DNA from: Theionarchaea archaeon
GTDB lineage: Archaea > Methanobacteriota_B > Thermococci > Methanofastidiosales > SZ-28-30
DNA: 64,000 bases
Direction: 5' to 3'
NCBI GenBank assembly: GCA_018992685.1
Contig: JACVGT010000011.1
Coordinates: 124,001 to 188,000, forward strand
The notes below the pieces were generated by a model. The model searched no databases and had not been told where the DNA came from. It saw only the letters and a program-made list of their open reading frames with translations. This document shows positions 15,660 to 29,615 of the stretch, piece after piece (position 1 is the stretch's first letter; every line of letters starts with the position of its first letter). The translations under genes were made by a program, and so were the position numbers.

Positions 15660-15934
15660 CTGCGATTACATCAGTCCACCGTATGCACAGTCTCTTGAAG
15701 GTTGTAAGCCTATTGATATCCCCTGGATTATCGGAAGACTGAGGATCATCAGAGCTACTATGAAAGTCTCTGGTTATAAATCTGTGGCCTTAAAGGTCGT
15801 AGATCACCTCTTTTTGGCCTCTTGAAATACATTCAAAGAGCAGTCACATAAAAAAGCTTATACATCTTGAGTCTCCCAATCAAAGGTGGAGGATCTGATG
15901 GTTCGAGAGAGTGAAGAAGAGGAGTAATGATCAC

Positions 15935-16591
15935 ATGAGTAAGGATTTTCAGACGAGTTGGATGGAGATTTTTCTCCAGCGTGTTGAGGAGATTGCGGGA
16001 CAGGAGATCAAGGAGAAAGTGCAAGAAGGGAAAGAGAAGCTGCCCCTGCCCAACACACCAAAGGCAAGAAAGGAAATCTCAACATGGATTGCCCATGCCA
16101 TTGAGAAGCTCGATAATCTGGTCGACGAGAAAAAGAGAACCGACATACTGGTGGCCACCTGTCCCCATACATACCCAAAGAAGCGTATACGTGAGATGAG
16201 AGCCCTGTTCCAACAACTGGGCAGCATTGACAGGCTCATTGAAGAAATGCTAAAGGATACATCCTGGGGAGGCGTCCCCTATTATGATTATCCAGAAAGG
16301 GTCGAAACCGTCATCCGTATTACCAAGGTTCCTTTCAATCCTAAGGCCTACAAGATTGCTCAAACTGAACAGGAAAAAAGAAATTCCTACTGTCACTGCC
16401 CTGTGGTGCGGAAAGCCAATATGGAAATATCATCCACCATATGTTGCTGCTCGGGAGGATGGGATAAACAGCTATGGGAAGGTATTCTGGGCGAACCTCT
16501 TCGTGTAGAGCTTGCAAAGTCTATACTCAAAGGGGACGAATGCTGTGTCCATACTATCGAGATTCCTGCTCACTTTGTCGAGGGCCAGTAG
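15935..16591 (+). CDS. Cys-rich protein with YCHCP/CxCS C-terminal domain
   Basis: The 218-residue protein has a helical N-terminal half and a C-terminal domain with ordered cysteines: YCHCPVVR, then CCCSGGW, then GDECC before a final IEIP strand. The same pattern ends the protein at 28,617-29,615, so the two share a domain, possibly of the V4R or ATC-hydrolase-like kind; I cannot name it with certainty. The Cys/His groups could bind a metal or small thiol ligand. I chose ATG 15,935, as GAGGAG lies upstream; the frame could start at GTG 15,911. A TATA-like GCTTATACATC occurs near 15,855. Confidence 0.7.
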   Translation: MSKDFQTSWMEIFLQRVEEIAGQEIKEKVQEGKEKLPLPNTPKARKEISTWIAHAIEKLDNLVDEKKRTDILVATCPHTYPKKRIREMRALFQQLGSIDRLIEEMLKDTSWGGVPYYDYPERVETVIRITKVPFNPKAYKIAQTEQEKRNSYCHCPVVRKANMEISSTICCCSGGWDKQLWEGILGEPLRVELAKSILKGDECCVHTIEIPAHFVEGQ

Positions 16592-16633: not shown

Positions 16634-17566
16634 TCATGCCTTGAATCGTCTCCTAAGAGCTCTATATCCTTCCTCAAAAGTGCAAGGATACCCCAATAAT
16701 GCATCTTTCATGATATAGAGTGGAATTCTCTTGAAGTACAATTCCGATCGCAGGAGCATCTCTTCGTCCTTTGTACCTTTGTATGACTCGAAGACACGGG
16801 TTGCAAATGGTAAGCCATATTCTCGTAACCCAGTGAAATCGATAGCTGGATCACCAAGAGAGCGATCGCTAAAGTCAATGATGTTTATTCGCCTTTCTTG
16901 AGCGTCCCATAAGATGTGTTCGCTTCCCAAATCATTATGAGCGAGTACATGGGAATAATCGTGGCTAAGGGCAATTTCTAGTTCTTCAAAGTATTCTTCG
17001 ATGGAATGAATATATTTCTCAGGTAGACGAGGATAGAGAAGAACTCGTGTGTCTCGGACGAGCTCTTCGTACATTCTTTTCTGGTCTTCTGTTCTAACGT
17101 GACATTTCTTGAGGATGGATCTTGGTGTGGCGTGGAGAGCTGTAATGAATCCAGCGAGTTGGTTGGCAGCGCATTCCTTTTCAGAATCAGATAGGTGCTG
17201 AAAGCGAGAAGTCGTGAGTTCCAGGCCTTTCACCAGTGGATACCCGGCAAATGATTCGTCTCTGGAAATGTAAATGTAGTCAGGAATACCTACATCGACT
17301 TTTCTTTTCAGATAATGAAGGAGTTGTATCTCATTCATGAGCTCTCTCCTGTAAGAAGAATCTCGTGGAGCACGAAACACAATCATCTCATCGAGGATGA
17401 TGACTACATGATCCCACCCCTGAGTCAGGTAGCGATAGGTCTTCCATTCGAGTTCTGGAAACTCCTCTCTGATTCTCTGTAAGAAGCATTCCTCTTTCAC
17501 AAAGTCATTTTGACTACTCTCTATAAAGTTCTTCTTATAGGCATCATTCCGAACGCATCCTGGCAT
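16634..17566 (-). CDS. Aminoglycoside phosphotransferase-family kinase
   Basis: Kinase of the APH/choline kinase fold, 310 residues. The catalytic loop reads VLAHNDLGSEHIL, with Asp as base and downstream His/Asn-type metal residues, and the metal-binding segment reads INIIDFSDRSLGDPAIDF. The N-lobe contains VVIILDEMIVFRAPR with a plausible ATP-binding Arg/Lys region. Members phosphorylate aminoglycosides, macrolides or metabolites such as homoserine or fructosamine; the substrate here cannot be decided. It lies beside a transposase remnant in an accessory region, which fits a horizontally moved gene. Confidence 0.85.
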   Translation of the reverse strand: MPGCVRNDAYKKNFIESSQNDFVKEECFLQRIREEFPELEWKTYRYLTQGWDHVVIILDEMIVFRAPRDSSYRRELMNEIQLLHYLKRKVDVGIPDYIYISRDESFAGYPLVKGLELTTSRFQHLSDSEKECAANQLAGFITALHATPRSILKKCHVRTEDQKRMYEELVRDTRVLLYPRLPEKYIHSIEEYFEELEIALSHDYSHVLAHNDLGSEHILWDAQERRINIIDFSDRSLGDPAIDFTGLREYGLPFATRVFESYKGTKDEEMLLRSELYFKRIPLYIMKDALLGYPCTFEEGYRALRRRFKA

Positions 17567-17596: not shown

Positions 17597-18190
17597 TTAA
17601 TATTGAGGAGGTAGCTCTGGGCAAGTATAATGATGTATGCCCTCAATGCAAAAAGCTACCCTGTGAATGCTCCCTGCAGTGAGCATGTTTGGCAGCTCGG
17701 GTGCTAGCCCGTGATTTGTCCAATGAATCATCCCTCCCCTCAGTAATTCAATGACCTTTGTGTATACCTTGAGATTCTGGACAACAGCTAGGAGCATGAC
17801 ATGGGTCTTTCGGGTGTGGCGAAGACAGCGTTGTGTCCTGTTGCTGTGTCCAGTCTCCGTCCCGTCAAAGACACCTTCAATCATTCCACGAAATTGCTTA
17901 TAGAGTGTTTCACAGAAGTCTTTCCGTGCTTTCTGTCGAATGAGAGAAGCACCGCAGGATTCCCTCTGTTTGATCATGGGGATGAACCTCTCTTGTATTC
18001 AAGTCTGAGGTATTCCTCACTGTCATACCCTCTGTCACTGAGAACAATTCCATGAAAGATTTTGCGCGTCAGGAAATCATAGTAGCGTGAATTGTGGGCA
18101 GTACCATGAGAAACAGCGGCTGTAACAAGTGCAGTGACTCCATGCCCTGGAGTAAGTCCTTGTTCTTTCCAGTAGGCAAATCGAAGCTAC
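17597..18190 (-). mobile_element. Transposase remnant (DDE type), 5' truncated and frameshifted
   Basis: Minus-strand reading gives a DDE transposase C-terminal half. From about 18,185 the frame reads GVTALVTAAVSHGTAHNSR, then FHGIVLSDRGYDSEEYL with the second catalytic Asp, and then breaks near 17,985. It continues in another frame from 17,977 with a Glu in the EGVFDGTE region, as in IS5/IS1182-like enzymes. The N-terminal half is missing, ending abruptly next to the defence operon. A piece of the same 3' end occurs at 9,440-9,566. No inverted repeats or target duplications were identified. Confidence 0.8.
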
Positions 18191-18197
18191 TCAACTC

Positions 18198-18593
18198 CTA
18201 CATTATGGGATAGTAAAGATAACCAGGTTCCATTGAACCTATGTCATGAGGTCTTGGAAGAATCATTGCTAGAGGTCGGTCATGAATACTGGGGTTATCA
18301 GGAATTCTTTCAATGTCACATTCTACAACGAAGATCAGTGACGCATCAATTGCGAGCATGTCTGTAATCCCCGTATTCAAGACTTTTCTCGCCTGCTCTA
18401 TAGCTTCATCTGTTGAATACTTGAGGAATCTATCTAGTCCCTCTACAATAGTGAGTTTTTGGTGAGAATTGGTCTCAATCAATCTCAATAGATTAATAAT
18501 GCTTGTCTTGTGTATTAGAGTGAAATCTTCATCATGAATATCTCCGAATTTCTGACCCTCAATAACGTGGAATCCTCGTTTCCGTAGGTCCAC
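18198..18593 (-). CDS. Unknown small protein, last gene of BREX/Pgl-like operon
   Basis: A 131-residue protein with GTG start directly after the stop of the methylase gene (TAAGTG), so it belongs to the operon. No Walker A motif. It has an alpha/beta look, with strands such as LTIVEGLDRFL and ASLIFVVECDIERIP and a central acidic helix. The stop codon lies only a few bases before a transposase remnant, so the C-terminus, or further genes of the operon, may have been cut off. Family not recognised; it could be the start of a larger accessory protein. Confidence 0.6.
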   Translation of the reverse strand: MDLRKRGFHVIEGQKFGDIHDEDFTLIHKTSIINLLRLIETNSHQKLTIVEGLDRFLKYSTDEAIEQARKVLNTGITDMLAIDASLIFVVECDIERIPDNPSIHDRPLAMILPRPHDIGSMEPGYLYYPIM

Positions 18594-21206
18594 TTATTTC
18601 ACCTCCAAGCCGAAGTCCTCCAAGGTCTTGCTAGGTGAGGTTTTGAAGGTGTGATATATCCTTTTCCATGTTGTATTATTCGTCCGCTCCGCCATAAATC
18701 CCATATACTGCCCCAACCTCTCCTTGTCGAGACCTGTTCGGAGTATCATTTCGAGTGTACTACCAAAGTTTCCATTGTCTTCTCTATCTATCCATAATAG
18801 ATGAGCTGCGTCAATGTAGGTTAAAGGAATTCTCCTGGACATCTTTTTGTCGATGAAGTCTTTTCTTTCATTCGGCGGTGTAATAGTCATTATATCCTTT
18901 TTTTTGTCTCTCACCACCAGTTTCTCCTCTTCAAACGTATTTGTTTCTATGCCTCCGTGTCTAGTGAGCTTGTTAATTGTATCATTCGAGATTTTCACTT
19001 TCTTCGCAAAGATGCTAGCATATATCTTTGATATCCGATCAACATCTGGCACTCTCTCCAATACACGCCTCAATAGTGAATCAAATACAATGTCTCCCAT
19101 GATTTCCATCGAAACTTCTGAGACATCGAATACCTGACTATCTCTCGTAATGTTCCCATAGTTTCGGCTGTAAACCTGCAAGGCCTTTCCCATTGCAATT
19201 ATGAAGGCATCTTCAACTTCAAGGTCGGGATGCTTGTCGACAATAGTGCTTATGCTAATATCAACATGGCTTCTTAGCTCGCTTTCAAATATTACCCAAG
19301 GTACTTGCTGGTGCTTTCTTTCGAGAAGCTTACGACAGACTATAATTGAATTATAGTTTATTCCAAAGGCTCTTACTCCACTTGGAGTCTCACCATGCGT
19401 TGGATAAACTGCAGTAACATAAAACCCTGCTTTGAGTATTGCACTTAAAATCGCAGACCACGCTTCAGTTTTCTTGTGCTGGAATACAAAAACCAATATA
19501 CCATCTTCTCTAAGAACTCGGTGGGATTCGCTAAGCACTCTTGTCATTCCTTCAATGTAGAACCTTTCATTTTTACCCTGAGTAGCATTGACCAGTATTT
19601 CTCTGTCTTTTCTTGTGAGCGGAGATTTGAAAACATCTTTGTCTTCCAACCCTAACCTGAGCCAGACATAGAAGAAATCTGACAGTTCAGAGTACATTAT
19701 GTTGGCATAGTACGGAGGATCAGTTATTACTGCATCAACACTTTTTTCTGGGATGAAATCAAGATCCTCTGCAGTATCACATCTTAGTAGTACATCTCTA
19801 TCCCCAAGGAGATCTTCAAAGTAACTGGTGTTGTTACCATTGATTTCTTCATCTTGTATGATTAATTTACTTCTGATCTTTTTTCTTTGTCCATGTTTTC
19901 CTTTTTTCAACTTGAATCTTATCTCATATGGACTTTGTTGATATTCAAGTGCCCTGAGCGCTTTTTCAAAATATTTCCGGAATGTTCCTCTCCCGTATTT
20001 CGTTCCCCACACATTTCCTTCAATCGGAAATACTGGTGGCCAGAAATGGTGACCACCAAAGAGTGGTTCAATCTCAAGTCTTATCATGTTGTATACTGTG
20101 AACATATTATTTGAATTCAGACTATCTGAGAAGAGGATTAGAAGAAATTCCTTGATATTCTCATCTTCGGTTTTCAATATTTCTTCGAGGACTAGGCTAA
20201 GGCATACAAGCTGTCTCTTGTTAAACATTTGATACCAATAGCGGTAATTAAAGTTCCTCATTTGATTTGTGTTGAAACCAATAGGAATTTCCTGAAGAGG
20301 TATTAATTTCCCAAACAGTTGATCTCTCTTCTGGATAAATTCGCTATTTGCCCTCATGTACAGTTCAATGTCCTTTTCATCAGGCTTCTTGTAATCTCTT
20401 CGCTTCCATCCGCTTTCTTCGCACTCCTGACAGTAGTATTCTATTGCGTACATCTCATGTTCTGGTGGGTTTTTGGTGTCTTTCACTGCAGAGAGAATAT
20501 CTCCTTGGTATTTGCAGTGTTGGCACTTATATATCTTTCCAGTAGCGAATCCATTGTCAGGACTGAATCTGCTGGCACAGGCAGAACAAAGGATTACTTC
20601 AAGACTCTTTTCTGCGGAAAAGATTTCACCACATCTGGGGCACTGATAAACCCAGTGATCCCTGAGTTTGGCAACTACAAAAGACCTATACAATGGTACA
20701 TCTTTGCTGCAGTTTTCACACTTCACCTTCTTTGCCCAAAAAACATACATTACATCTGCATTGTGACCTTTGTTGCATGAAGTCCTATAATAAGATAGTA
20801 TCTGATTCTTGGTTGCTTCTTCGATTCTCTTAAGCTCTTTTCTTATTCTTGTTTTTTCCACAGGTTTAAGTTCCATTCTTGTGATATACCATGCCAGGGG
20901 ATTTATGTCAATGCCTATCATTCTGCAACCGAGTCTATGCCCTTCTATGATTGTTGTACCACCGCCCATAAAAGGATCAAGAATAATAGGGGGATTTCCT
21001 TTCTTGTTTCTTAATTTACTTCTTTTGTAATAGTGGATCATGGGATCTTCTTCAAGAAATGTGCCAAGTATGAGTGCCCGAAAAGTACTACCAACCCTGC
21101 GGGCAAACCATTTATGAATATGATATATTGGTTTTCTCGCATTGCTTTCACTCCAGGCGATTTCATCTATCTGTTCGATTGGAAAGTCTTTTTCGATATA
21201 CGGCAC
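18594..21206 (-). CDS. DUF1156 adenine-specific DNA methylase with zinc ribbons
   Basis: Large DNA methyltransferase of the COG1743 kind (PglXI-like in type 3 BREX), 870 residues. The N-terminal DUF1156 region reads IYHIHKWFARRVGSTFRALI. The AdoMet motif DPFMGGGTT is at 77-85 and the catalytic DPPY at 496-499, far apart as in this family. Between them lie five Cys pairs (163/166, 189/192, 207/210, 228/231, 259/262) forming zinc ribbons. It would methylate adenine in host DNA to mark self. The start is GTG one base after the PglZ-like stop. Full length and intact. Confidence 0.88.
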   Translation of the reverse strand: MPYIEKDFPIEQIDEIAWSESNARKPIYHIHKWFARRVGSTFRALILGTFLEEDPMIHYYKRSKLRNKKGNPPIILDPFMGGGTTIIEGHRLGCRMIGIDINPLAWYITRMELKPVEKTRIRKELKRIEEATKNQILSYYRTSCNKGHNADVMYVFWAKKVKCENCSKDVPLYRSFVVAKLRDHWVYQCPRCGEIFSAEKSLEVILCSACASRFSPDNGFATGKIYKCQHCKYQGDILSAVKDTKNPPEHEMYAIEYYCQECEESGWKRRDYKKPDEKDIELYMRANSEFIQKRDQLFGKLIPLQEIPIGFNTNQMRNFNYRYWYQMFNKRQLVCLSLVLEEILKTEDENIKEFLLILFSDSLNSNNMFTVYNMIRLEIEPLFGGHHFWPPVFPIEGNVWGTKYGRGTFRKYFEKALRALEYQQSPYEIRFKLKKGKHGQRKKIRSKLIIQDEEINGNNTSYFEDLLGDRDVLLRCDTAEDLDFIPEKSVDAVITDPPYYANIMYSELSDFFYVWLRLGLEDKDVFKSPLTRKDREILVNATQGKNERFYIEGMTRVLSESHRVLREDGILVFVFQHKKTEAWSAILSAILKAGFYVTAVYPTHGETPSGVRAFGINYNSIIVCRKLLERKHQQVPWVIFESELRSHVDISISTIVDKHPDLEVEDAFIIAMGKALQVYSRNYGNITRDSQVFDVSEVSMEIMGDIVFDSLLRRVLERVPDVDRISKIYASIFAKKVKISNDTINKLTRHGGIETNTFEEEKLVVRDKKKDIMTITPPNERKDFIDKKMSRRIPLTYIDAAHLLWIDREDNGNFGSTLEMILRTGLDKERLGQYMGFMAERTNNTTWKRIYHTFKTSPSKTLEDFGLEVK

Positions 21207-21207
21207 C

Positions 21208-22122
21208 CTATCTACCTCGATTCTGTTTTATTTCGATAAATGGGATGATCGTTTCAAGAAAAGATAATCCACCATGTCGCACATGGACGTATTTTCCTCT
21301 TTTTATAGTATTGTACCTTCCCACAAGTATCCAGTAGTTGTCAAACTGCCTGCAGTATCTTTTCAGAGATTCTGGAACGCTAGACGAATACCTCTTGTTA
21401 CTTGGGAAATCCGATAATCCCTTCCAGGAGAAGGTATCCACAAAATATCCATGATCTGAGGTGACAATAATCCTATCATAGAATGATAGGTGTTCTAACA
21501 ACTCAAAAAGAATGCTCTTTGTTTTACTAAGCACCTTTTTGAGATCTTGGGTTTCGAATGCACTCGTGAACTGAGAAAACATAAAGTCGGGAAACGTCGA
21601 CCAGATCAGCAACTTATTCTTGTCCACGGGAATATCACCAATGGCATCCTCTCTTTCCAAGTGGACGTAATAATACTCGTCTCCAGTTCTAATTTGTGAA
21701 GGTGACGAGGTGTTGAAGTATTGACTTGTGAAGAATTCCGTTTCGCTCGGGATTGCCGAGAGTGTGTATCCATATCTTATCTCTTTGTGTCTTTTCAAAT
21801 CTCTTGATAAGGGTATAGCCTCTCTTAGGCTCATTCCGTCCATAATTATAAGACAAAAGCAGTTTTCCAATGCTATCATTGGTATTGCATTGTTCTTGCC
21901 TACGTTCTGTAAGATAGAGTCAAATACCTCTGGAAAGATCCTGAAAACTTGTTCTTCAAATTTGGATGTTAACTTCTCCCCCAGAGGGTAGTAATTGTCT
22001 TCTTCTGACAACGCGTAGTTCCAGATTTCATTGAGAGATACGAATATCTCATCTAATGGATCTCCCTGGATAAGTTTATTAATATCAGCGATTCTAACCG
22101 AATCCTTGTCTATCTCTATCAT
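21208..22122 (-). CDS. PglZ-like alkaline phosphatase-fold protein
   Basis: A 304-residue protein with the hallmarks of PglZ: LIIMDGMSLREA with metal-binding Asp95, AIPSETEFF as the likely Ser/Thr position, IVTSDHGYF with Asp223 and His224, and VRHGGLSFLETIIPF with His283. These are the metal ligands of the alkaline phosphatase superfamily. PglZ is the common core of all BREX and Pgl phage-defence systems, although its role is not settled. It is shorter than most PglZ proteins, so it is a compact form. The start overlaps the ATPase stop by 4 bases (ATGA). Confidence 0.82.
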   Translation of the reverse strand: MIEIDKDSVRIADINKLIQGDPLDEIFVSLNEIWNYALSEEDNYYPLGEKLTSKFEEQVFRIFPEVFDSILQNVGKNNAIPMIALENCFCLIIMDGMSLREAIPLSRDLKRHKEIRYGYTLSAIPSETEFFTSQYFNTSSPSQIRTGDEYYYVHLEREDAIGDIPVDKNKLLIWSTFPDFMFSQFTSAFETQDLKKVLSKTKSILFELLEHLSFYDRIIVTSDHGYFVDTFSWKGLSDFPSNKRYSSSVPESLKRYCRQFDNYWILVGRYNTIKRGKYVHVRHGGLSFLETIIPFIEIKQNRGR

Positions 22123-25118
22123 ATCTCCTTTCTCCTTGCGAGAAACCTAATGTTCAAGTCACCAGCTTTCTTAAGAAGATTCATGAGTTCCCTTGCAGTT
22201 AAGTCCTTTGCAACTTCTATCCTAACATCTTCCATGATGTCGGCATCTTCCACTTCTTTTTCAATTCTCTTCAATATCTCGCTGATCGTCCCTTCTTCTC
22301 TAAAGATGATTCTTTTCTTTGGTAGCTCTCGGGATGGACCCTTCCCCTTTGGTAATGAGAAAATACTCTTATCTTTGTCAAATACGAGCCTATTTTCATC
22401 AATTAAGGAGGCGATTGCATAATTAATGATTTTCTTTTCTGTTGGAAATATCTTGGATACTTCTTCCACAAGGGGTTCCCTTCTGAATTCACCTTCCTTT
22501 TCCACTTCAATGAATACTTTTTTCTTCACTTCTTCAGTTAATTTTTCCTCCGGAAGTTGAATTACAACAGAATCTTTTCCTCTCAAAATGTGCACTTGGG
22601 TCCCTATTTCTAAGTTGTCTCCTGCCATTAAGACAAGATCATCCGTTATGCCAGAATTCCCGTGAGTTTCTTTAAGAATTATGCTTAAATCTGTCACCTT
22701 GGTGGCAATTCTTTCATTAACGATCTTGAGAATCAGTGGCTCCAAGATTTCAGCAGCCTCTTCTACTACAACTAAGGCGCTAAGTTTTACATTCGAAGGT
22801 CTACTGATAATCCTATTCTCCTCTAAAGCAAATATTCCATCCTCTGTGTTTATTGATGAAATGTAGACTGTTTCGAGAATTTTATCATCAATGAAAGGAT
22901 AGCTCTCCGCGAATTTCCTAAAGGGTAATCTCTTCTTGTCTCTGACCATTACTGCTATATCACTTGAAGTGGGAGGTATGGCAATTTCTAGTGGTTTCTT
23001 GACAACGTCTTCATTGCCAATTGTCTGAGGCGATATAGGTTTTCTATAAAGTATTCTGCCTTGTTTCGTCTTGATAGCTACCTGGCCAATTTTCTCTGTT
23101 TCAACCAGTAATGATAATAAATCCTCATCTCTTAAGAGCATTGGTGCTCCTTCAAGCCTGTACAACCTCTCCTTTAGATCTCGTACTGATATTTCATCGT
23201 TTTCCTCTAAGATCATGTTCAAGAAGTATTCTAAGAGGTCTTTTGAGGCATAATTCCTAATAACTCGGTCAACATCTCTAAGGCTTGTTATGGTCCTTTC
23301 ATCTGGAGCGGGTTTGTCTCTTGGATTCTTCCTGAACCATCTGAATCCCCTCCACCCAGCATTATCTATCTGTCTTGTTATATGTTTCATGTATTCTTCA
23401 TGGAATTCCTTGAAGGGCTTTTCTTGCCCTTCCGTATCGGCCAATTCATCACTAGCTATTATTCGCTTAGCTAGTTTTATTGTTTCATCGCTTTTCAGGC
23501 TATAACTCGGATACAGAAGATAAAGGGTGTTTCTGTTCGTGAATTCTGGCGGATATAGATATGAAACATCTATGGGTTTTTCCAATAGTGTTAGTATTTT
23601 CAGTCTTTTATCGTTACTAATCTCAGATGGATCATGAATGAGTCTGTAACCTTTGATCTCGGATGAAGCTTTTCTTTCTACCAGTTTTTCTATGATCTGT
23701 AGAGCATCACCTGAAGACACCAACTCAGATTTTCTTTCGATTTTTACTGCAACTGGAAGCTCAGTCGTTATGACATATCTTATTGTTCCATCTTCCTCAA
23801 CTCTCTTCAATCTCGTCCATTTCTCCAAGAATGATATAGTGTCATCAATATCTTGAACCTTATACTTCGGACCGCAACCAAAGACAATGTCCTTGACGTC
23901 GGCGCCTTTTTTTGCTTCAGTGGTGCCTAGCATAGAAGTGATCAATATTGCTCTAGCAAGTTCAAATGAGATTATACCATCCTTGACTTCCTTTGTATTC
24001 TGCACAAATCCTATGTCTTCAAAATATGCATCAACAACCTTAGGATTTGCTGAATGCAAATAATCGCGTAAGATATCATCATCAAGGTCTGAGGAGATTA
24101 TCAGGTCTACTTCATCGATTTTTCTCATCACAACTTTTGCTAGCATTACAAGCATTTGCCTTACTCTAAGATGACTCAATGTTCTAAGGAACGAAGGATG
24201 GAATGGATATGCTTTTTTGAGCTCGTCCTTCAAGTATGAGTTTTCATCTAGCCCCTTCTTGCGCAATCTTTCCCCGATTGTCCTCAGATAATCTGGAATA
24301 ATAATGTCTATCTTGTTTTGATCAATGCTCTTGAACAATCTGAACCTGACAATGCCAAATATGTCATCCGATCTTTGCATGATTATCGAAGAACCACCAC
24401 GTGGGCGAGCCACAATATCCCTCAGTACTTTGACGTCAGAAGATATACCTAAGAAGGTTGTAACAAGCTTAAACTGACATCGTGAATCTTCAGAGGATTC
24501 AGAAAGACCCTGCAAGAACCCTCGAACTCTTGCTTTCTCTTGGTTGTTCTTTGCATCATACCAGTTGTCAATTTCATCAATTAGCATTAGGACGTTTTTC
24601 TCCCCTATTGCTTTCTTTATTTGATTAGATCTAGGCCAATCACCTTCTCCAAAGCCAATGTCTTTTCCCAGTGCTTGAAAAAGGGGGGACCATAGGTCTC
24701 TATAGCTAACACTCTGAAGAGGTATTGGGATAATTGCGGTTCCCCTGATTCTAGGAAAGTCTATACCCCATTCTTGAAACCATCTATCAGCATGATCTGT
24801 ATGTCTGAAGATATGATACAATGTTAGAAGAACATGAGATTTCCCTGAACCCAAATAACCATCTAAAGGAAAGACACCGGGACCGGTGCTTTCAATTTTC
24901 TCCTTTATGTCCCTCAATATCTCTCTTATGACACTGGTAGGGTATGTATGAGAAAAGAACCATTCCGGGTCACCCTCTAGTCCTCCCAGCTGAGCTGGGG
25001 CTTTTGGTCCCTCAGGAGGCCTGAAATTGTCCCATGATATTACGGGATTGATATTTCTGATAAGTTGGGATTCACTTTTGGCGTTGACTATTTCTTTACG
25101 AAGTTTGACAGCAAGCAT
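22119..25118 (-). CDS. DUF499 AAA+ ATPase (BrxC/PglY-like)
   Basis: Large P-loop ATPase of COG1483 type, 999 residues. Walker A is GYLGSGKS at 87-94 and Walker B LMLIDEIDNW with Asp181/Glu182. A sensor-like region and a long C-terminal half of winged-helix or strand-rich segments follow, as in BrxC/PglY and DUF499 proteins. It is the first gene of the operon, with ATG preceded by GGGAGGAG at 7 bases. A minus-strand TATA (ATTAAATATT) lies near 25,297. Known BrxC proteins couple ATP use to DNA modification and restriction by the complex. Confidence 0.87.
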   Translation of the reverse strand: MLAVKLRKEIVNAKSESQLIRNINPVISWDNFRPPEGPKAPAQLGGLEGDPEWFFSHTYPTSVIREILRDIKEKIESTGPGVFPLDGYLGSGKSHVLLTLYHIFRHTDHADRWFQEWGIDFPRIRGTAIIPIPLQSVSYRDLWSPLFQALGKDIGFGEGDWPRSNQIKKAIGEKNVLMLIDEIDNWYDAKNNQEKARVRGFLQGLSESSEDSRCQFKLVTTFLGISSDVKVLRDIVARPRGGSSIIMQRSDDIFGIVRFRLFKSIDQNKIDIIIPDYLRTIGERLRKKGLDENSYLKDELKKAYPFHPSFLRTLSHLRVRQMLVMLAKVVMRKIDEVDLIISSDLDDDILRDYLHSANPKVVDAYFEDIGFVQNTKEVKDGIISFELARAILITSMLGTTEAKKGADVKDIVFGCGPKYKVQDIDDTISFLEKWTRLKRVEEDGTIRYVITTELPVAVKIERKSELVSSGDALQIIEKLVERKASSEIKGYRLIHDPSEISNDKRLKILTLLEKPIDVSYLYPPEFTNRNTLYLLYPSYSLKSDETIKLAKRIIASDELADTEGQEKPFKEFHEEYMKHITRQIDNAGWRGFRWFRKNPRDKPAPDERTITSLRDVDRVIRNYASKDLLEYFLNMILEENDEISVRDLKERLYRLEGAPMLLRDEDLLSLLVETEKIGQVAIKTKQGRILYRKPISPQTIGNEDVVKKPLEIAIPPTSSDIAVMVRDKKRLPFRKFAESYPFIDDKILETVYISSINTEDGIFALEENRIISRPSNVKLSALVVVEEAAEILEPLILKIVNERIATKVTDLSIILKETHGNSGITDDLVLMAGDNLEIGTQVHILRGKDSVVIQLPEEKLTEEVKKKVFIEVEKEGEFRREPLVEEVSKIFPTEKKIINYAIASLIDENRLVFDKDKSIFSLPKGKGPSRELPKKRIIFREEGTISEILKRIEKEVEDADIMEDVRIEVAKDLTARELMNLLKKAGDLNIRFLARRKEI

Positions 25119-28616: not shown

Positions 28617-29615
28617 TCATGGAGATTTCTCAGCAGCCTCCACAACATCTGCGGGAAGATGAACTGCAAACTCGCACACAAGGTCTCCACTCAGAACAGA
28701 TTTCAAAACTTTAACTTCTATTGGCTGATCGAGAACGATCTCCCAGTATGCCCTGTAGTATCCTGCACTACAGTTGCAGAATATAGGAGAGACGGGTTGT
28801 GGGGATTTTACCAGAGCTTCTCTTACCCACGGGCAATGGCAATAGTAATAGCGCCTCTTCTGTTCATCCGTTTCCCTCAGGTATTCATCTGCCATACACG
28901 GGATTTTCCTCACGATAAGTACGTCTCCTTTGCGAACACCGCCTTCAATATAGGGATCATTCGCTATGAAATCAAGCACTGGAGCAGTGATTCTCTGCGT
29001 GAAATAGAAGGTTCCATCCTTGAAATGCTTCTCCAGCTCCTGGAGATACGCTGAGCGCTTGGTTTTGAGGAACTCATCAATATTCTTTGATTTGAGAAAT
29101 CTCTCTCTGTCAGGCTTCCGCCATTGCTCATAACGATCTCTCAGCCCCTGATTCAAGAATTGACAACAGCGCTCGACACCCAGGACTTTTTCAAGTCGTG
29201 GTAGAAGTTTCTTTGTGTATTCTGGTTTCTTATCAGGAGGTATTCCCAATGGAGGAAGAGATATCCCCTCAAAGACCTTGTTTCTGATATCATCACCAAA
29301 TTCCTCTATCAATCGCCTGGAAAGATTCTCCATCACCTCTCTTCCGTCAAGAACTTCCATTGCAGCGAGATAGAGGTCCGGATTTGCCACAAGTCCATAA
29401 CGAAGAATACTCAGGTAGGCCTCCAGGGTGTTCTCCCCTTGATCAACCAGATGATTGGAATACTCATAGAAATCTTTTCCTGATGCTCTGTCAACAGTGG
29501 TCCCTTTCTGTTTTAGGAAACCATCAAATTCCTTCACCAGAGCAATAGACCTTTCAATCGTTTCTTTTTCTACATTGTTTTTCTCCATGAACATTCTGAA
29601 TTTCTTCTCATCCAT
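28617..29615 (-). CDS. Protein with SAM-like N-terminal region and YCHCP domain
   Basis: A 332-residue protein. The first 100 residues resemble the helical N-terminal SAM-like domain of tyrosine integrases (FLKQKGTTVDRASGKDFYEY), but no integrase catalytic domain follows. The C-terminal 130 residues share an ordered Cys pattern with the gene at 15,935-16,591: YYYCHCPWVR, FCNCSAGYY and a Cys in GDLVCEF before a final strand. The function is unknown; the cysteine-rich part may bind a metal or thiol ligand. A minus-strand TATA-like GTATTTATATAG lies near 29,765. Confidence 0.72.
   Translation of the reverse strand: MDEKKFRMFMEKNNVEKETIERSIALVKEFDGFLKQKGTTVDRASGKDFYEYSNHLVDQGENTLEAYLSILRYGLVANPDLYLAAMEVLDGREVMENLSRRLIEEFGDDIRNKVFEGISLPPLGIPPDKKPEYTKKLLPRLEKVLGVERCCQFLNQGLRDRYEQWRKPDRERFLKSKNIDEFLKTKRSAYLQELEKHFKDGTFYFTQRITAPVLDFIANDPYIEGGVRKGDVLIVRKIPCMADEYLRETDEQKRRYYYCHCPWVREALVKSPQPVSPIFCNCSAGYYRAYWEIVLDQPIEVKVLKSVLSGDLVCEFAVHLPADVVEAAEKSP

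What the first reader, a model, noticed from the sequence alone, without database searches (positions are those of the whole stretch)
18198..25118. Reduced BREX/Pgl-like defence operon: DUF499 ATPase, PglZ-like, DUF1156 methylase and an unknown small protein
Seen: four genes in one direction, with overlaps or one-base gaps. Established: DUF499/BrxC-PglY-like ATPases, PglZ and DUF1156 methylases (PglXI of type 3 BREX) are core parts of BREX/Pgl phage defence. Here there is no BrxA, BrxB, BrxL, BrxF or helicase, the PglZ is compact (304 residues), and a 131-residue protein of unknown family closes the operon. It may be a minimal or new subtype, or a locus cut short by the transposase remnant at 17,597-18,190.
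Basis: partly seen in the sequence, partly recalled or inferred. Interest (0 to 1): 0.85.

Follow-up and report, generated by a model that had tools for sequence, protein, structure and literature searches.

The report
Helicase-free four-gene archaeal BREX-like defence operon
An archaeal genome carries a compact four-gene antiviral operon that encodes the same four functions as the core of the BREX defence system (ATPase, DNA methylase, PglZ nuclease and probably a small sensor/adaptor) but lacks the helicase its published relatives are said to have, and the same helicase-less set recurs across salt-loving archaea, so it looks like a natural minimal version rather than a broken one.

Summary
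In detail: four tightly coupled minus-strand genes at 18198-25118. They are a DUF499 AAA+ ATPase (999 aa, Walker A/B intact), a compact stand-alone PglZ (304 aa, both residues needed for PglZ nuclease activity conserved), a DUF1156 N6-adenine methylase (870 aa) and a 131-aa protein. It is not BREX proper. Gene content and order match the 'Type-3 BREX-Related (BR)' system published in January 2026 (PMC12839542: DUF499 + MTase + stand-alone PglZ + inactive-STAND protein + Swi2/Snf2 helicase), minus the helicase. The 131-aa protein is probably the inactive-STAND component (same position; weak sequence and fold support). No Swi2/Snf2 helicase was found anywhere in this genome. The same ordered quartet without the helicase occurs at 17 haloarchaeal loci, four of them in genomes with no match to the bacterial BrxHII-type helicase; bacterial relatives have it as the fifth gene. 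The missing helicase is therefore typical of the archaeal branch, although a local loss beside the transposon relic cannot be excluded. [quoted passage not shown] Verdict: a real, helicase-free archaeal variant of a recently described system; moderately interesting.

The parts
22119..25118 (-). DUF499 AAA+ ATPase, 999 aa (BrxC-like scaffold ATPase)
   Evidence: PF04465 44.5 bits, NCBIfam DUF499_antiphage 44.8 bits, PADLOC HmaC 40.5 bits
24837..24860 (-). Walker A, GYLGSGKS (residues 87-94)
   Evidence: motif scan
24573..24590 (-). Walker B, LMLIDE (residues 177-182)
   Evidence: motif scan
21208..22122 (-). compact stand-alone PglZ, 304 aa
   Evidence: family profile hits PDB PglZ 9nv3_C E=3.4e-8 and PorX; homologues in the same slot at all 25 relative loci compared
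21838..21840 (-). PglZ D95 in IMDGMSLRE, invariant
   Evidence: alignment A1
21739..21741 (-). PglZ T128 in LPSET; aligns with PorX T272 / E. fergusonii PglZ T538 (nuclease ablated when mutated)
21448..21456 (-). PglZ D223-H224-G225, invariant
21268..21276 (-). PglZ H283-G284-G285; H283 aligns with PorX H500 / PglZ H741
18594..21206 (-). DUF1156 N6-adenine DNA methyltransferase, 870 aa
   Evidence: PADLOC PglXI 114.8 bits, HmaB 107 bits; NCBIfam DUF1156_antiphage 142 bits
20955..20978 (-). MTase SAM motif DPFMGGGT (residues 77-84)
20421..20720 (-). five CxxC motifs (CENC, CPRC, CSAC, CQHC, CQEC; residues 163-262) in the insert between the SAM motif and the catalytic motif
19707..19721 (-). MTase catalytic motif DPPYY (residues 496-500)
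18198..18593 (-). 131-aa protein, probable inactive-STAND (BrxB/BrxF-like) component without a Walker A motif
   Evidence: best of 321 window ORFs against a profile of the small proteins of other quartets (E=0.0035), 0 of 3000 shuffles reach its score; model resembles AAA+ folds weakly
17597..18190 (-). decayed repeat/transposon relic just past the 3' end of the operon (not part of the system)
   Evidence: partial copies elsewhere in G000 and G001; no Pfam match

Best explanation
It is a complete, helicase-free, four-gene archaeal variant of the Type-3 BREX-Related (DUF499-centred) modification-restriction system. Proposed working: the DUF1156 methylase marks a short site in host DNA by N6-adenine methylation. 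The DUF499 AAA+ ATPase assembles on DNA and holds the methylase, PglZ and the small protein together. The 131-aa protein, an inactive AAA+/STAND remnant, docks on the ATPase and regulates PglZ. When the complex meets unmethylated viral DNA, it switches from methylation to restriction, and the compact metal-dependent PglZ nicks the DNA or degrades nucleotides so that replication stops. Shown here: the genes, their coupling, intact ATPase/MTase/PglZ motifs, recurrence of the quartet, and absence of the helicase. Inferred from Type-1 BREX (PMC13326643, PMC12205998): complex formation, the switch and PglZ nicking. Not shown: any activity of this operon.
For: Operon structure and families. PglZ identity and the two residues needed for PglZ activity. 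The same ordered quartet DUF499 - stand-alone PglZ - DUF1156 MTase - ~130 aa at 17 haloarchaeal loci with no complete Swi2/Snf2 helicase of this type in the fetched stretch. In an all-against-all comparison of 25 relative loci these four are the only genes that recur throughout: ATPase and PglZ homologues in all 25, MTase in 24, the small protein in 19 by BLAST. Bacterial relatives have the same order plus a helicase as last gene (L032, L033, L071). No SNF2-domain protein in the own genome, while the same search rings in 14 of 14 control genomes. Four quartet-bearing haloarchaeal genomes have no match to the bacterial Type-3-BR helicase, while the same search finds it in the Methanoperedens genome. 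[quoted passage not shown]
Against: The 3' flank is rearranged: a truncated transposon relic begins 8 bases after the last stop codon, just where bacteria and Methanoperedens (L068) have the helicase, so a local loss is possible. The genome is 91% complete, so a helicase elsewhere could be missed. The iSTAND call is weak: hhalign gives 1.5% probability, and Foldseek's best match has E=0.027 on a model of mean pLDDT 61. In Type-1 BREX, BrxB was crystallised with the N-terminal PglZ residues 1-98, a domain this compact PglZ lacks, so the partner contacts must differ. Divergence is high (17-39% identity to the relatives). No methylation or defence data exist.
Confidence: 0.7

Rival explanations
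1. A Type-3 BR system that lost its helicase at this locus by insertion or deletion next to the transposon relic, and is now restriction-deficient, perhaps methylation only.
For: A 5'-truncated relic abuts the operon exactly where the helicase sits in L068, L032, L033 and L071. No helicase elsewhere in the genome.
Against: All four remaining genes are intact and coupled. Haloarchaeal quartets with different 3' flanks lack the helicase too, including in genomes with no match to the bacterial helicase. On the tree the presence or absence of the helicase needs only two changes.
Confidence: 0.2
2. The helicase is supplied in trans by an unrelated helicase or translocase of the host, so the quartet is not truly helicase-free in function.
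For: Several haloarchaeal hosts have SNF2-type helicases at other loci (pHLAC01 at 25.7 kb, G397, G409). A few loci have other helicases nearby (L063 upstream ResIII, L064 XPB-type fragment, L070 446-aa RapA_C fragment).
Against: The window's genome and four haloarchaeal genomes have no match to the Type-3-BR helicase, and no neighbouring helicase is conserved across quartets.
Confidence: 0.2
3. The operon is mainly a DNA-marking or regulatory methylation system, with PglZ and ATPase needed for methylase activity, not a defence system.
For: In Type-1 BREX the ATPase, BrxB and PglZ are required for methylation itself (PMC13326643). No canonical nuclease lies in the operon.
Against: The PglZ residues needed for nuclease activity are kept. 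Relatives sit on plasmids and beside other defence-type genes: McrBC/AAA_5 ATPases, Pbe genes, SIR2-HerA.
Confidence: 0.15

Closest known systems
Type-3 BREX-Related (BR) system (Rakesh & Krishnan, NAR 2026, PMC12839542)
   Same: DUF499 ATPase, DUF1156-type N6-MTase with zinc motifs in the insert, stand-alone active-site-bearing PglZ, small protein in the iSTAND slot, same gene order as the bacterial examples found here
   Different: No Swi2/Snf2 (BrxHII-like) helicase here, nor at 17 haloarchaeal loci; the paper's main text says the subgroup retains all three core components, helicase included (its supplementary tables could not be read here)
Type-1 BREX core (B:C:X:Z assembly of BrxB, BrxC, PglX, PglZ; PMC13326643)
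   Same: The same four functions: AAA+ ATPase, adenine MTase, PglZ and (probably) an inactive AAA+ protein
   Different: DUF499 instead of BrxC/DUF6079, a different MTase class (insert instead of C-terminal recognition domain), PglZ without its N-terminal BrxB-binding domain, no BrxA or BrxL
Type-3 BREX (BrxF, BrxC, PglXI, BrxHII, PglZ, BrxA)
   Same: MTase most similar to PglXI among PADLOC models; PglZ C-terminus weakly matches BREX_PglZ_3
   Different: No BrxA, BrxHII or full-length PglZ; ATPase is DUF499
Hma / Type-1 BR (helicase, MTase, DUF499 ATPase)
   Same: ATPase and MTase match HmaC and HmaB
   Different: PglZ and small protein present, helicase-nuclease absent

Membership tests
Type-3 BR system | DUF499 AAA+ ATPase | tested here: met
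   PF04465 44.5 bits, above cut-off; Walker A and B intact
Type-3 BR system | N6-adenine MTase with DUF1156 and recognition insert (subset with two 4C zinc motifs) | tested here: met
   DUF1156 25.1 bits (cut-off 24), N6_N4_Mtase 55 bits; DPFMGGGT at 77 and DPPYY at 496 with five CxxC between
Type-3 BR system | stand-alone PglZ with intact metal-site residues | tested here: met
   304 aa; profile E=3.4e-8 to PDB PglZ; T128 and H283 aligned with T538 and H741
Type-3 BR system | small inactive-STAND protein (82% of systems) | tested here: inconclusive
   same slot and size; profile E=0.0035, 0 of 3000 shuffles; hhalign 1.5%; Foldseek best match DnaA AAA+ domain E=0.027 on a pLDDT-61 model
Type-3 BR system | Swi2/Snf2 BrxHII-like helicase without nuclease fusion | tested here: not met
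   absent from the locus and from the held genome
BREX (any type) | BrxC/DUF6079 ATPase | tested here: not met
   DUF499 is the only family above its cut-off
BREX (any type) | BrxA-like DNA-binding protein | tested here: not met
   no such gene in or beside the operon by Pfam, NCBIfam or PADLOC
BREX / BR | site-specific adenine methylation and virus restriction | not testable with these tools
   needs native DNA sequencing and infection assays

The most novel reading that the evidence does not exclude
The archaeal quartet is a self-sufficient, minimal BREX-type immune machine: ATPase, methylase, small inactive AAA+ adaptor and a bare PglZ domain do both self-marking and restriction with no helicase, translocase, BrxA or BrxL, and PglZ is the only effector.
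Probability: 0.45. Interest if true: 0.7.

Novelty: new variant of a known kind. Interest (0 to 1): 0.5.

Why it matters
Which BREX parts are essential, and what role helicases and accessory proteins play, is an open question. A naturally occurring four-gene set that matches the Type-1 B:C:X:Z core, found in genomes where no Type-3-BR helicase was detected, offers a small system in which to test whether PglZ alone can restrict viruses. It also qualifies the published picture that the helicase is a constant part of Type-3 BR systems, at least for archaea.

Tried and rejected
PF08665 search of the own genome gave no match: the single protein is too divergent, so a family profile was used instead. 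The single-sequence genome scan with the PglZ found nothing; the 9-row alignment was too diverse to search with; a 4-row alignment worked. A viral-contig scan found nothing. The single-sequence fold of the 131-aa protein was useless (pLDDT 35); the aligned fold was better (61) but gives no significant match. NCBIfam scan of the 17 aligned small proteins gave no BrxF/BrxB match. hhalign could not confirm kinship between the archaeal and bacterial small proteins or with the window protein, so that step rests on position plus profile and shuffle tests. Relatives L003-L011, first found through the MTase, were not matched by the PglZ search of the same genomes and were set aside as other DUF499/DUF1156 systems. 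A first tree had two mis-framed MTase rows and was rebuilt. The only same-genus genome (G001) lacks the operon, so no empty-site comparison was possible.

Full report
Observation. The four minus-strand genes are as described: a 999-aa ATPase (22119-25118), a 304-aa protein (21208-22122), an 870-aa methylase (18594-21206) and a 131-aa protein (18198-18593). They are joined by a 4-base overlap, a 1-base gap and a 0-base gap, with plausible ribosome-binding stretches, so they form one translationally coupled operon. The operon has 39% G+C against 45% for the window.

Families. The ATPase is DUF499 (44.5 bits, cut-off 23) and no BrxC family matched; the methylase has DUF1156 and N6_N4_Mtase domains. 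PADLOC's nearest models are HmaC for the ATPase and PglXI/HmaB for the methylase. The 304-aa protein falls below the PglZ cut-off alone (18.3 bits), but a profile of nine relatives matches PglZ 9nv3_C (E=3.4e-8) and PorX structures. The invariant residues of the family include D95, T128 of LPSET, D179, D223-H224 and H283. T128 and H283 align with PorX T272/H500, which correspond to E. fergusonii PglZ T538/H741; T538A abolishes nuclease activity (PMC12205998). The ATPase has GYLGSGKS and LMLIDE; the methylase has DPFMGGGT at residue 77 and DPPYY at 496, with five CxxC motifs in the insert.

The published frame. Rakesh and Krishnan (PMC12839542) describe DUF499-centred BREX-Related systems. Their Type-3 BR has ATPase, methylase, helicase, a stand-alone PglZ and an inactive-STAND protein. 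Our operon fits this apart from the helicase.

Neighbourhood comparison. Plasmid searches and a genome-collection scan gave relatives. At 17 haloarchaeal loci (L030, L031, L034, L035, L057-L067, L069, L070) the order is DUF499 - PglZ (~300 aa) - DUF1156 methylase - 128-132-aa protein, as in the window. None has a complete Swi2/Snf2 helicase of the Type-3 BR kind in the fetched stretch; L070 has a 446-aa helicase C-terminal fragment 3.9 kb downstream. L034 and L067 have identical ATPase and PglZ, and the methylase frame of L034 is interrupted. Bacterial relatives (Aminobacter L032, Citrobacter L033, Kiritimatiellae L071) have the same order with the helicase last. Among archaea, a Methanoperedens locus (L068) has a 1092-aa SNF2 helicase in that place, and its near relative, an ANME-2 locus (L055), has none. 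Comparing 25 relative loci, only the four genes recur throughout (ATPase and PglZ 25, methylase 24, small protein 19 by BLAST).

Is the helicase elsewhere? The window's genome (3.03 Mb, 45 contigs, 91% complete) has no SNF2-domain match, although the same search rings in all 14 controls, and no close match to two relatives' helicases. Of the quartet-bearing haloarchaeal genomes, four (L060, L065, L066, L069) have no match to the Aminobacter helicase and one (L058) only an 18.8-bit match, while others do have SNF2-type helicases elsewhere. The Methanoperedens genome is a positive control in that search. On a tree of the three large proteins the presence or absence of the helicase needs two changes; the window is a long branch of uncertain place, and the root is assumed to lie with the bacteria.

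The 131-aa protein. It has no library match and no Walker A motif. A profile of the small proteins of other quartets, built without it, ranks it first of 321 window ORFs (E=0.0035); none of 3000 shuffles reaches its score. hhalign is not significant. A model with 17 sequences (mean pLDDT 61, 70-80 over residues 31-90) has alternating strands and helices; its best Foldseek match is the DnaA AAA+ domain (E=0.027, probability 0.91), and most of the 50 listed matches are P-loop NTPases, none significant. This agrees with an inactive AAA+/STAND protein but does not prove it.

Mechanism. [quoted passage not shown] BrxB, an inactive AAA+ protein, bridges BrxC and PglZ (PMC13326643). PglZ is a metal-dependent nicking nuclease that contributes to defence (PMC12205998). 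The archaeal quartet encodes the same four functions, so the simplest reading is a stand-alone version of that core. One step must differ: BrxB was crystallised with PglZ residues 1-98, and the compact PglZ lacks that domain, so the small protein must contact PglZ another way or act mainly through the ATPase (inference).

Truncation. A decayed repeat/transposon relic starts 8 bases after the last stop codon, at the place of the helicase in L068 and in bacteria. A local loss is therefore possible, but it is not needed, because the helicase-less state is the rule in the haloarchaea seen here.

Verdict. A real, intact, helicase-free archaeal variant of the Type-3 BR system. It fails one defining feature of that system as published, so I describe it as a variant that probably works like it and not as a full member. 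The paper's supplementary tables could not be read, so its authors may have recorded helicase-less loci there.

Noticed in passing
L033:10763-13640 (Citrobacter plasmid; similar PglZ hits on Klebsiella, Enterobacter and Raoultella plasmids): A SIR2_2 protein and a HerA-type ATPase are inserted between PglZ and the methylase of a Type-3 BR operon on an IncN plasmid, next to Tn7-like genes; possible built-in second effector.
   Followed up: partly
L055:10905-13011 (ANME-2): Two genes sit between PglZ and the methylase (400 aa unknown, 306 aa with a weak HSDR_N_2 match), so the PglZ-methylase junction seems a repeated insertion point; the small protein there is short (102 aa).
   Followed up: partly
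L022:311-14312 and L023:5000-19900: Two loci of the same class as the window have DUF499-PglZ-DUF7680 diverging from methylase-135 aa-226 aa-194 aa (weak nuclease match), beside PbeA/PbeC-like genes: a split arrangement with a possible extra nuclease.
   Followed up: partly
L030:14088-20244, L035, L065, L067, L069; also L060:1245-5736: A D12-type adenine methylase and a convergent AAA_5 ATPase with a partner gene (weak McrBC match in L060) recur next to one group of haloarchaeal quartets; possible companion restriction module.
   Followed up: partly
L056:7468-18393 (Desulfofervidaceae): DUF499-PglZ pair followed not by the methylase but by SMC-like ATPase genes and a UvrD-like helicase: the ATPase-PglZ pair may be separable from methylation.
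   Followed up: no
L055:6666-7358 and L068:6708-7400: A RadC-family gene lies directly upstream of the ATPase in both ANME-2 and Methanoperedens loci.
   Followed up: no
window 15911-16591 (+) and 28617-29615 (-): Two DUF6144-related genes lie on either side of the operon in opposite orientation (the second is below the family cut-off).
   Followed up: no
window 16634-17566 (-): A phosphotransferase with an APH domain (65.8 bits), far below the cut-offs of the named resistance families; probably an ordinary APH-like kinase.
   Followed up: no
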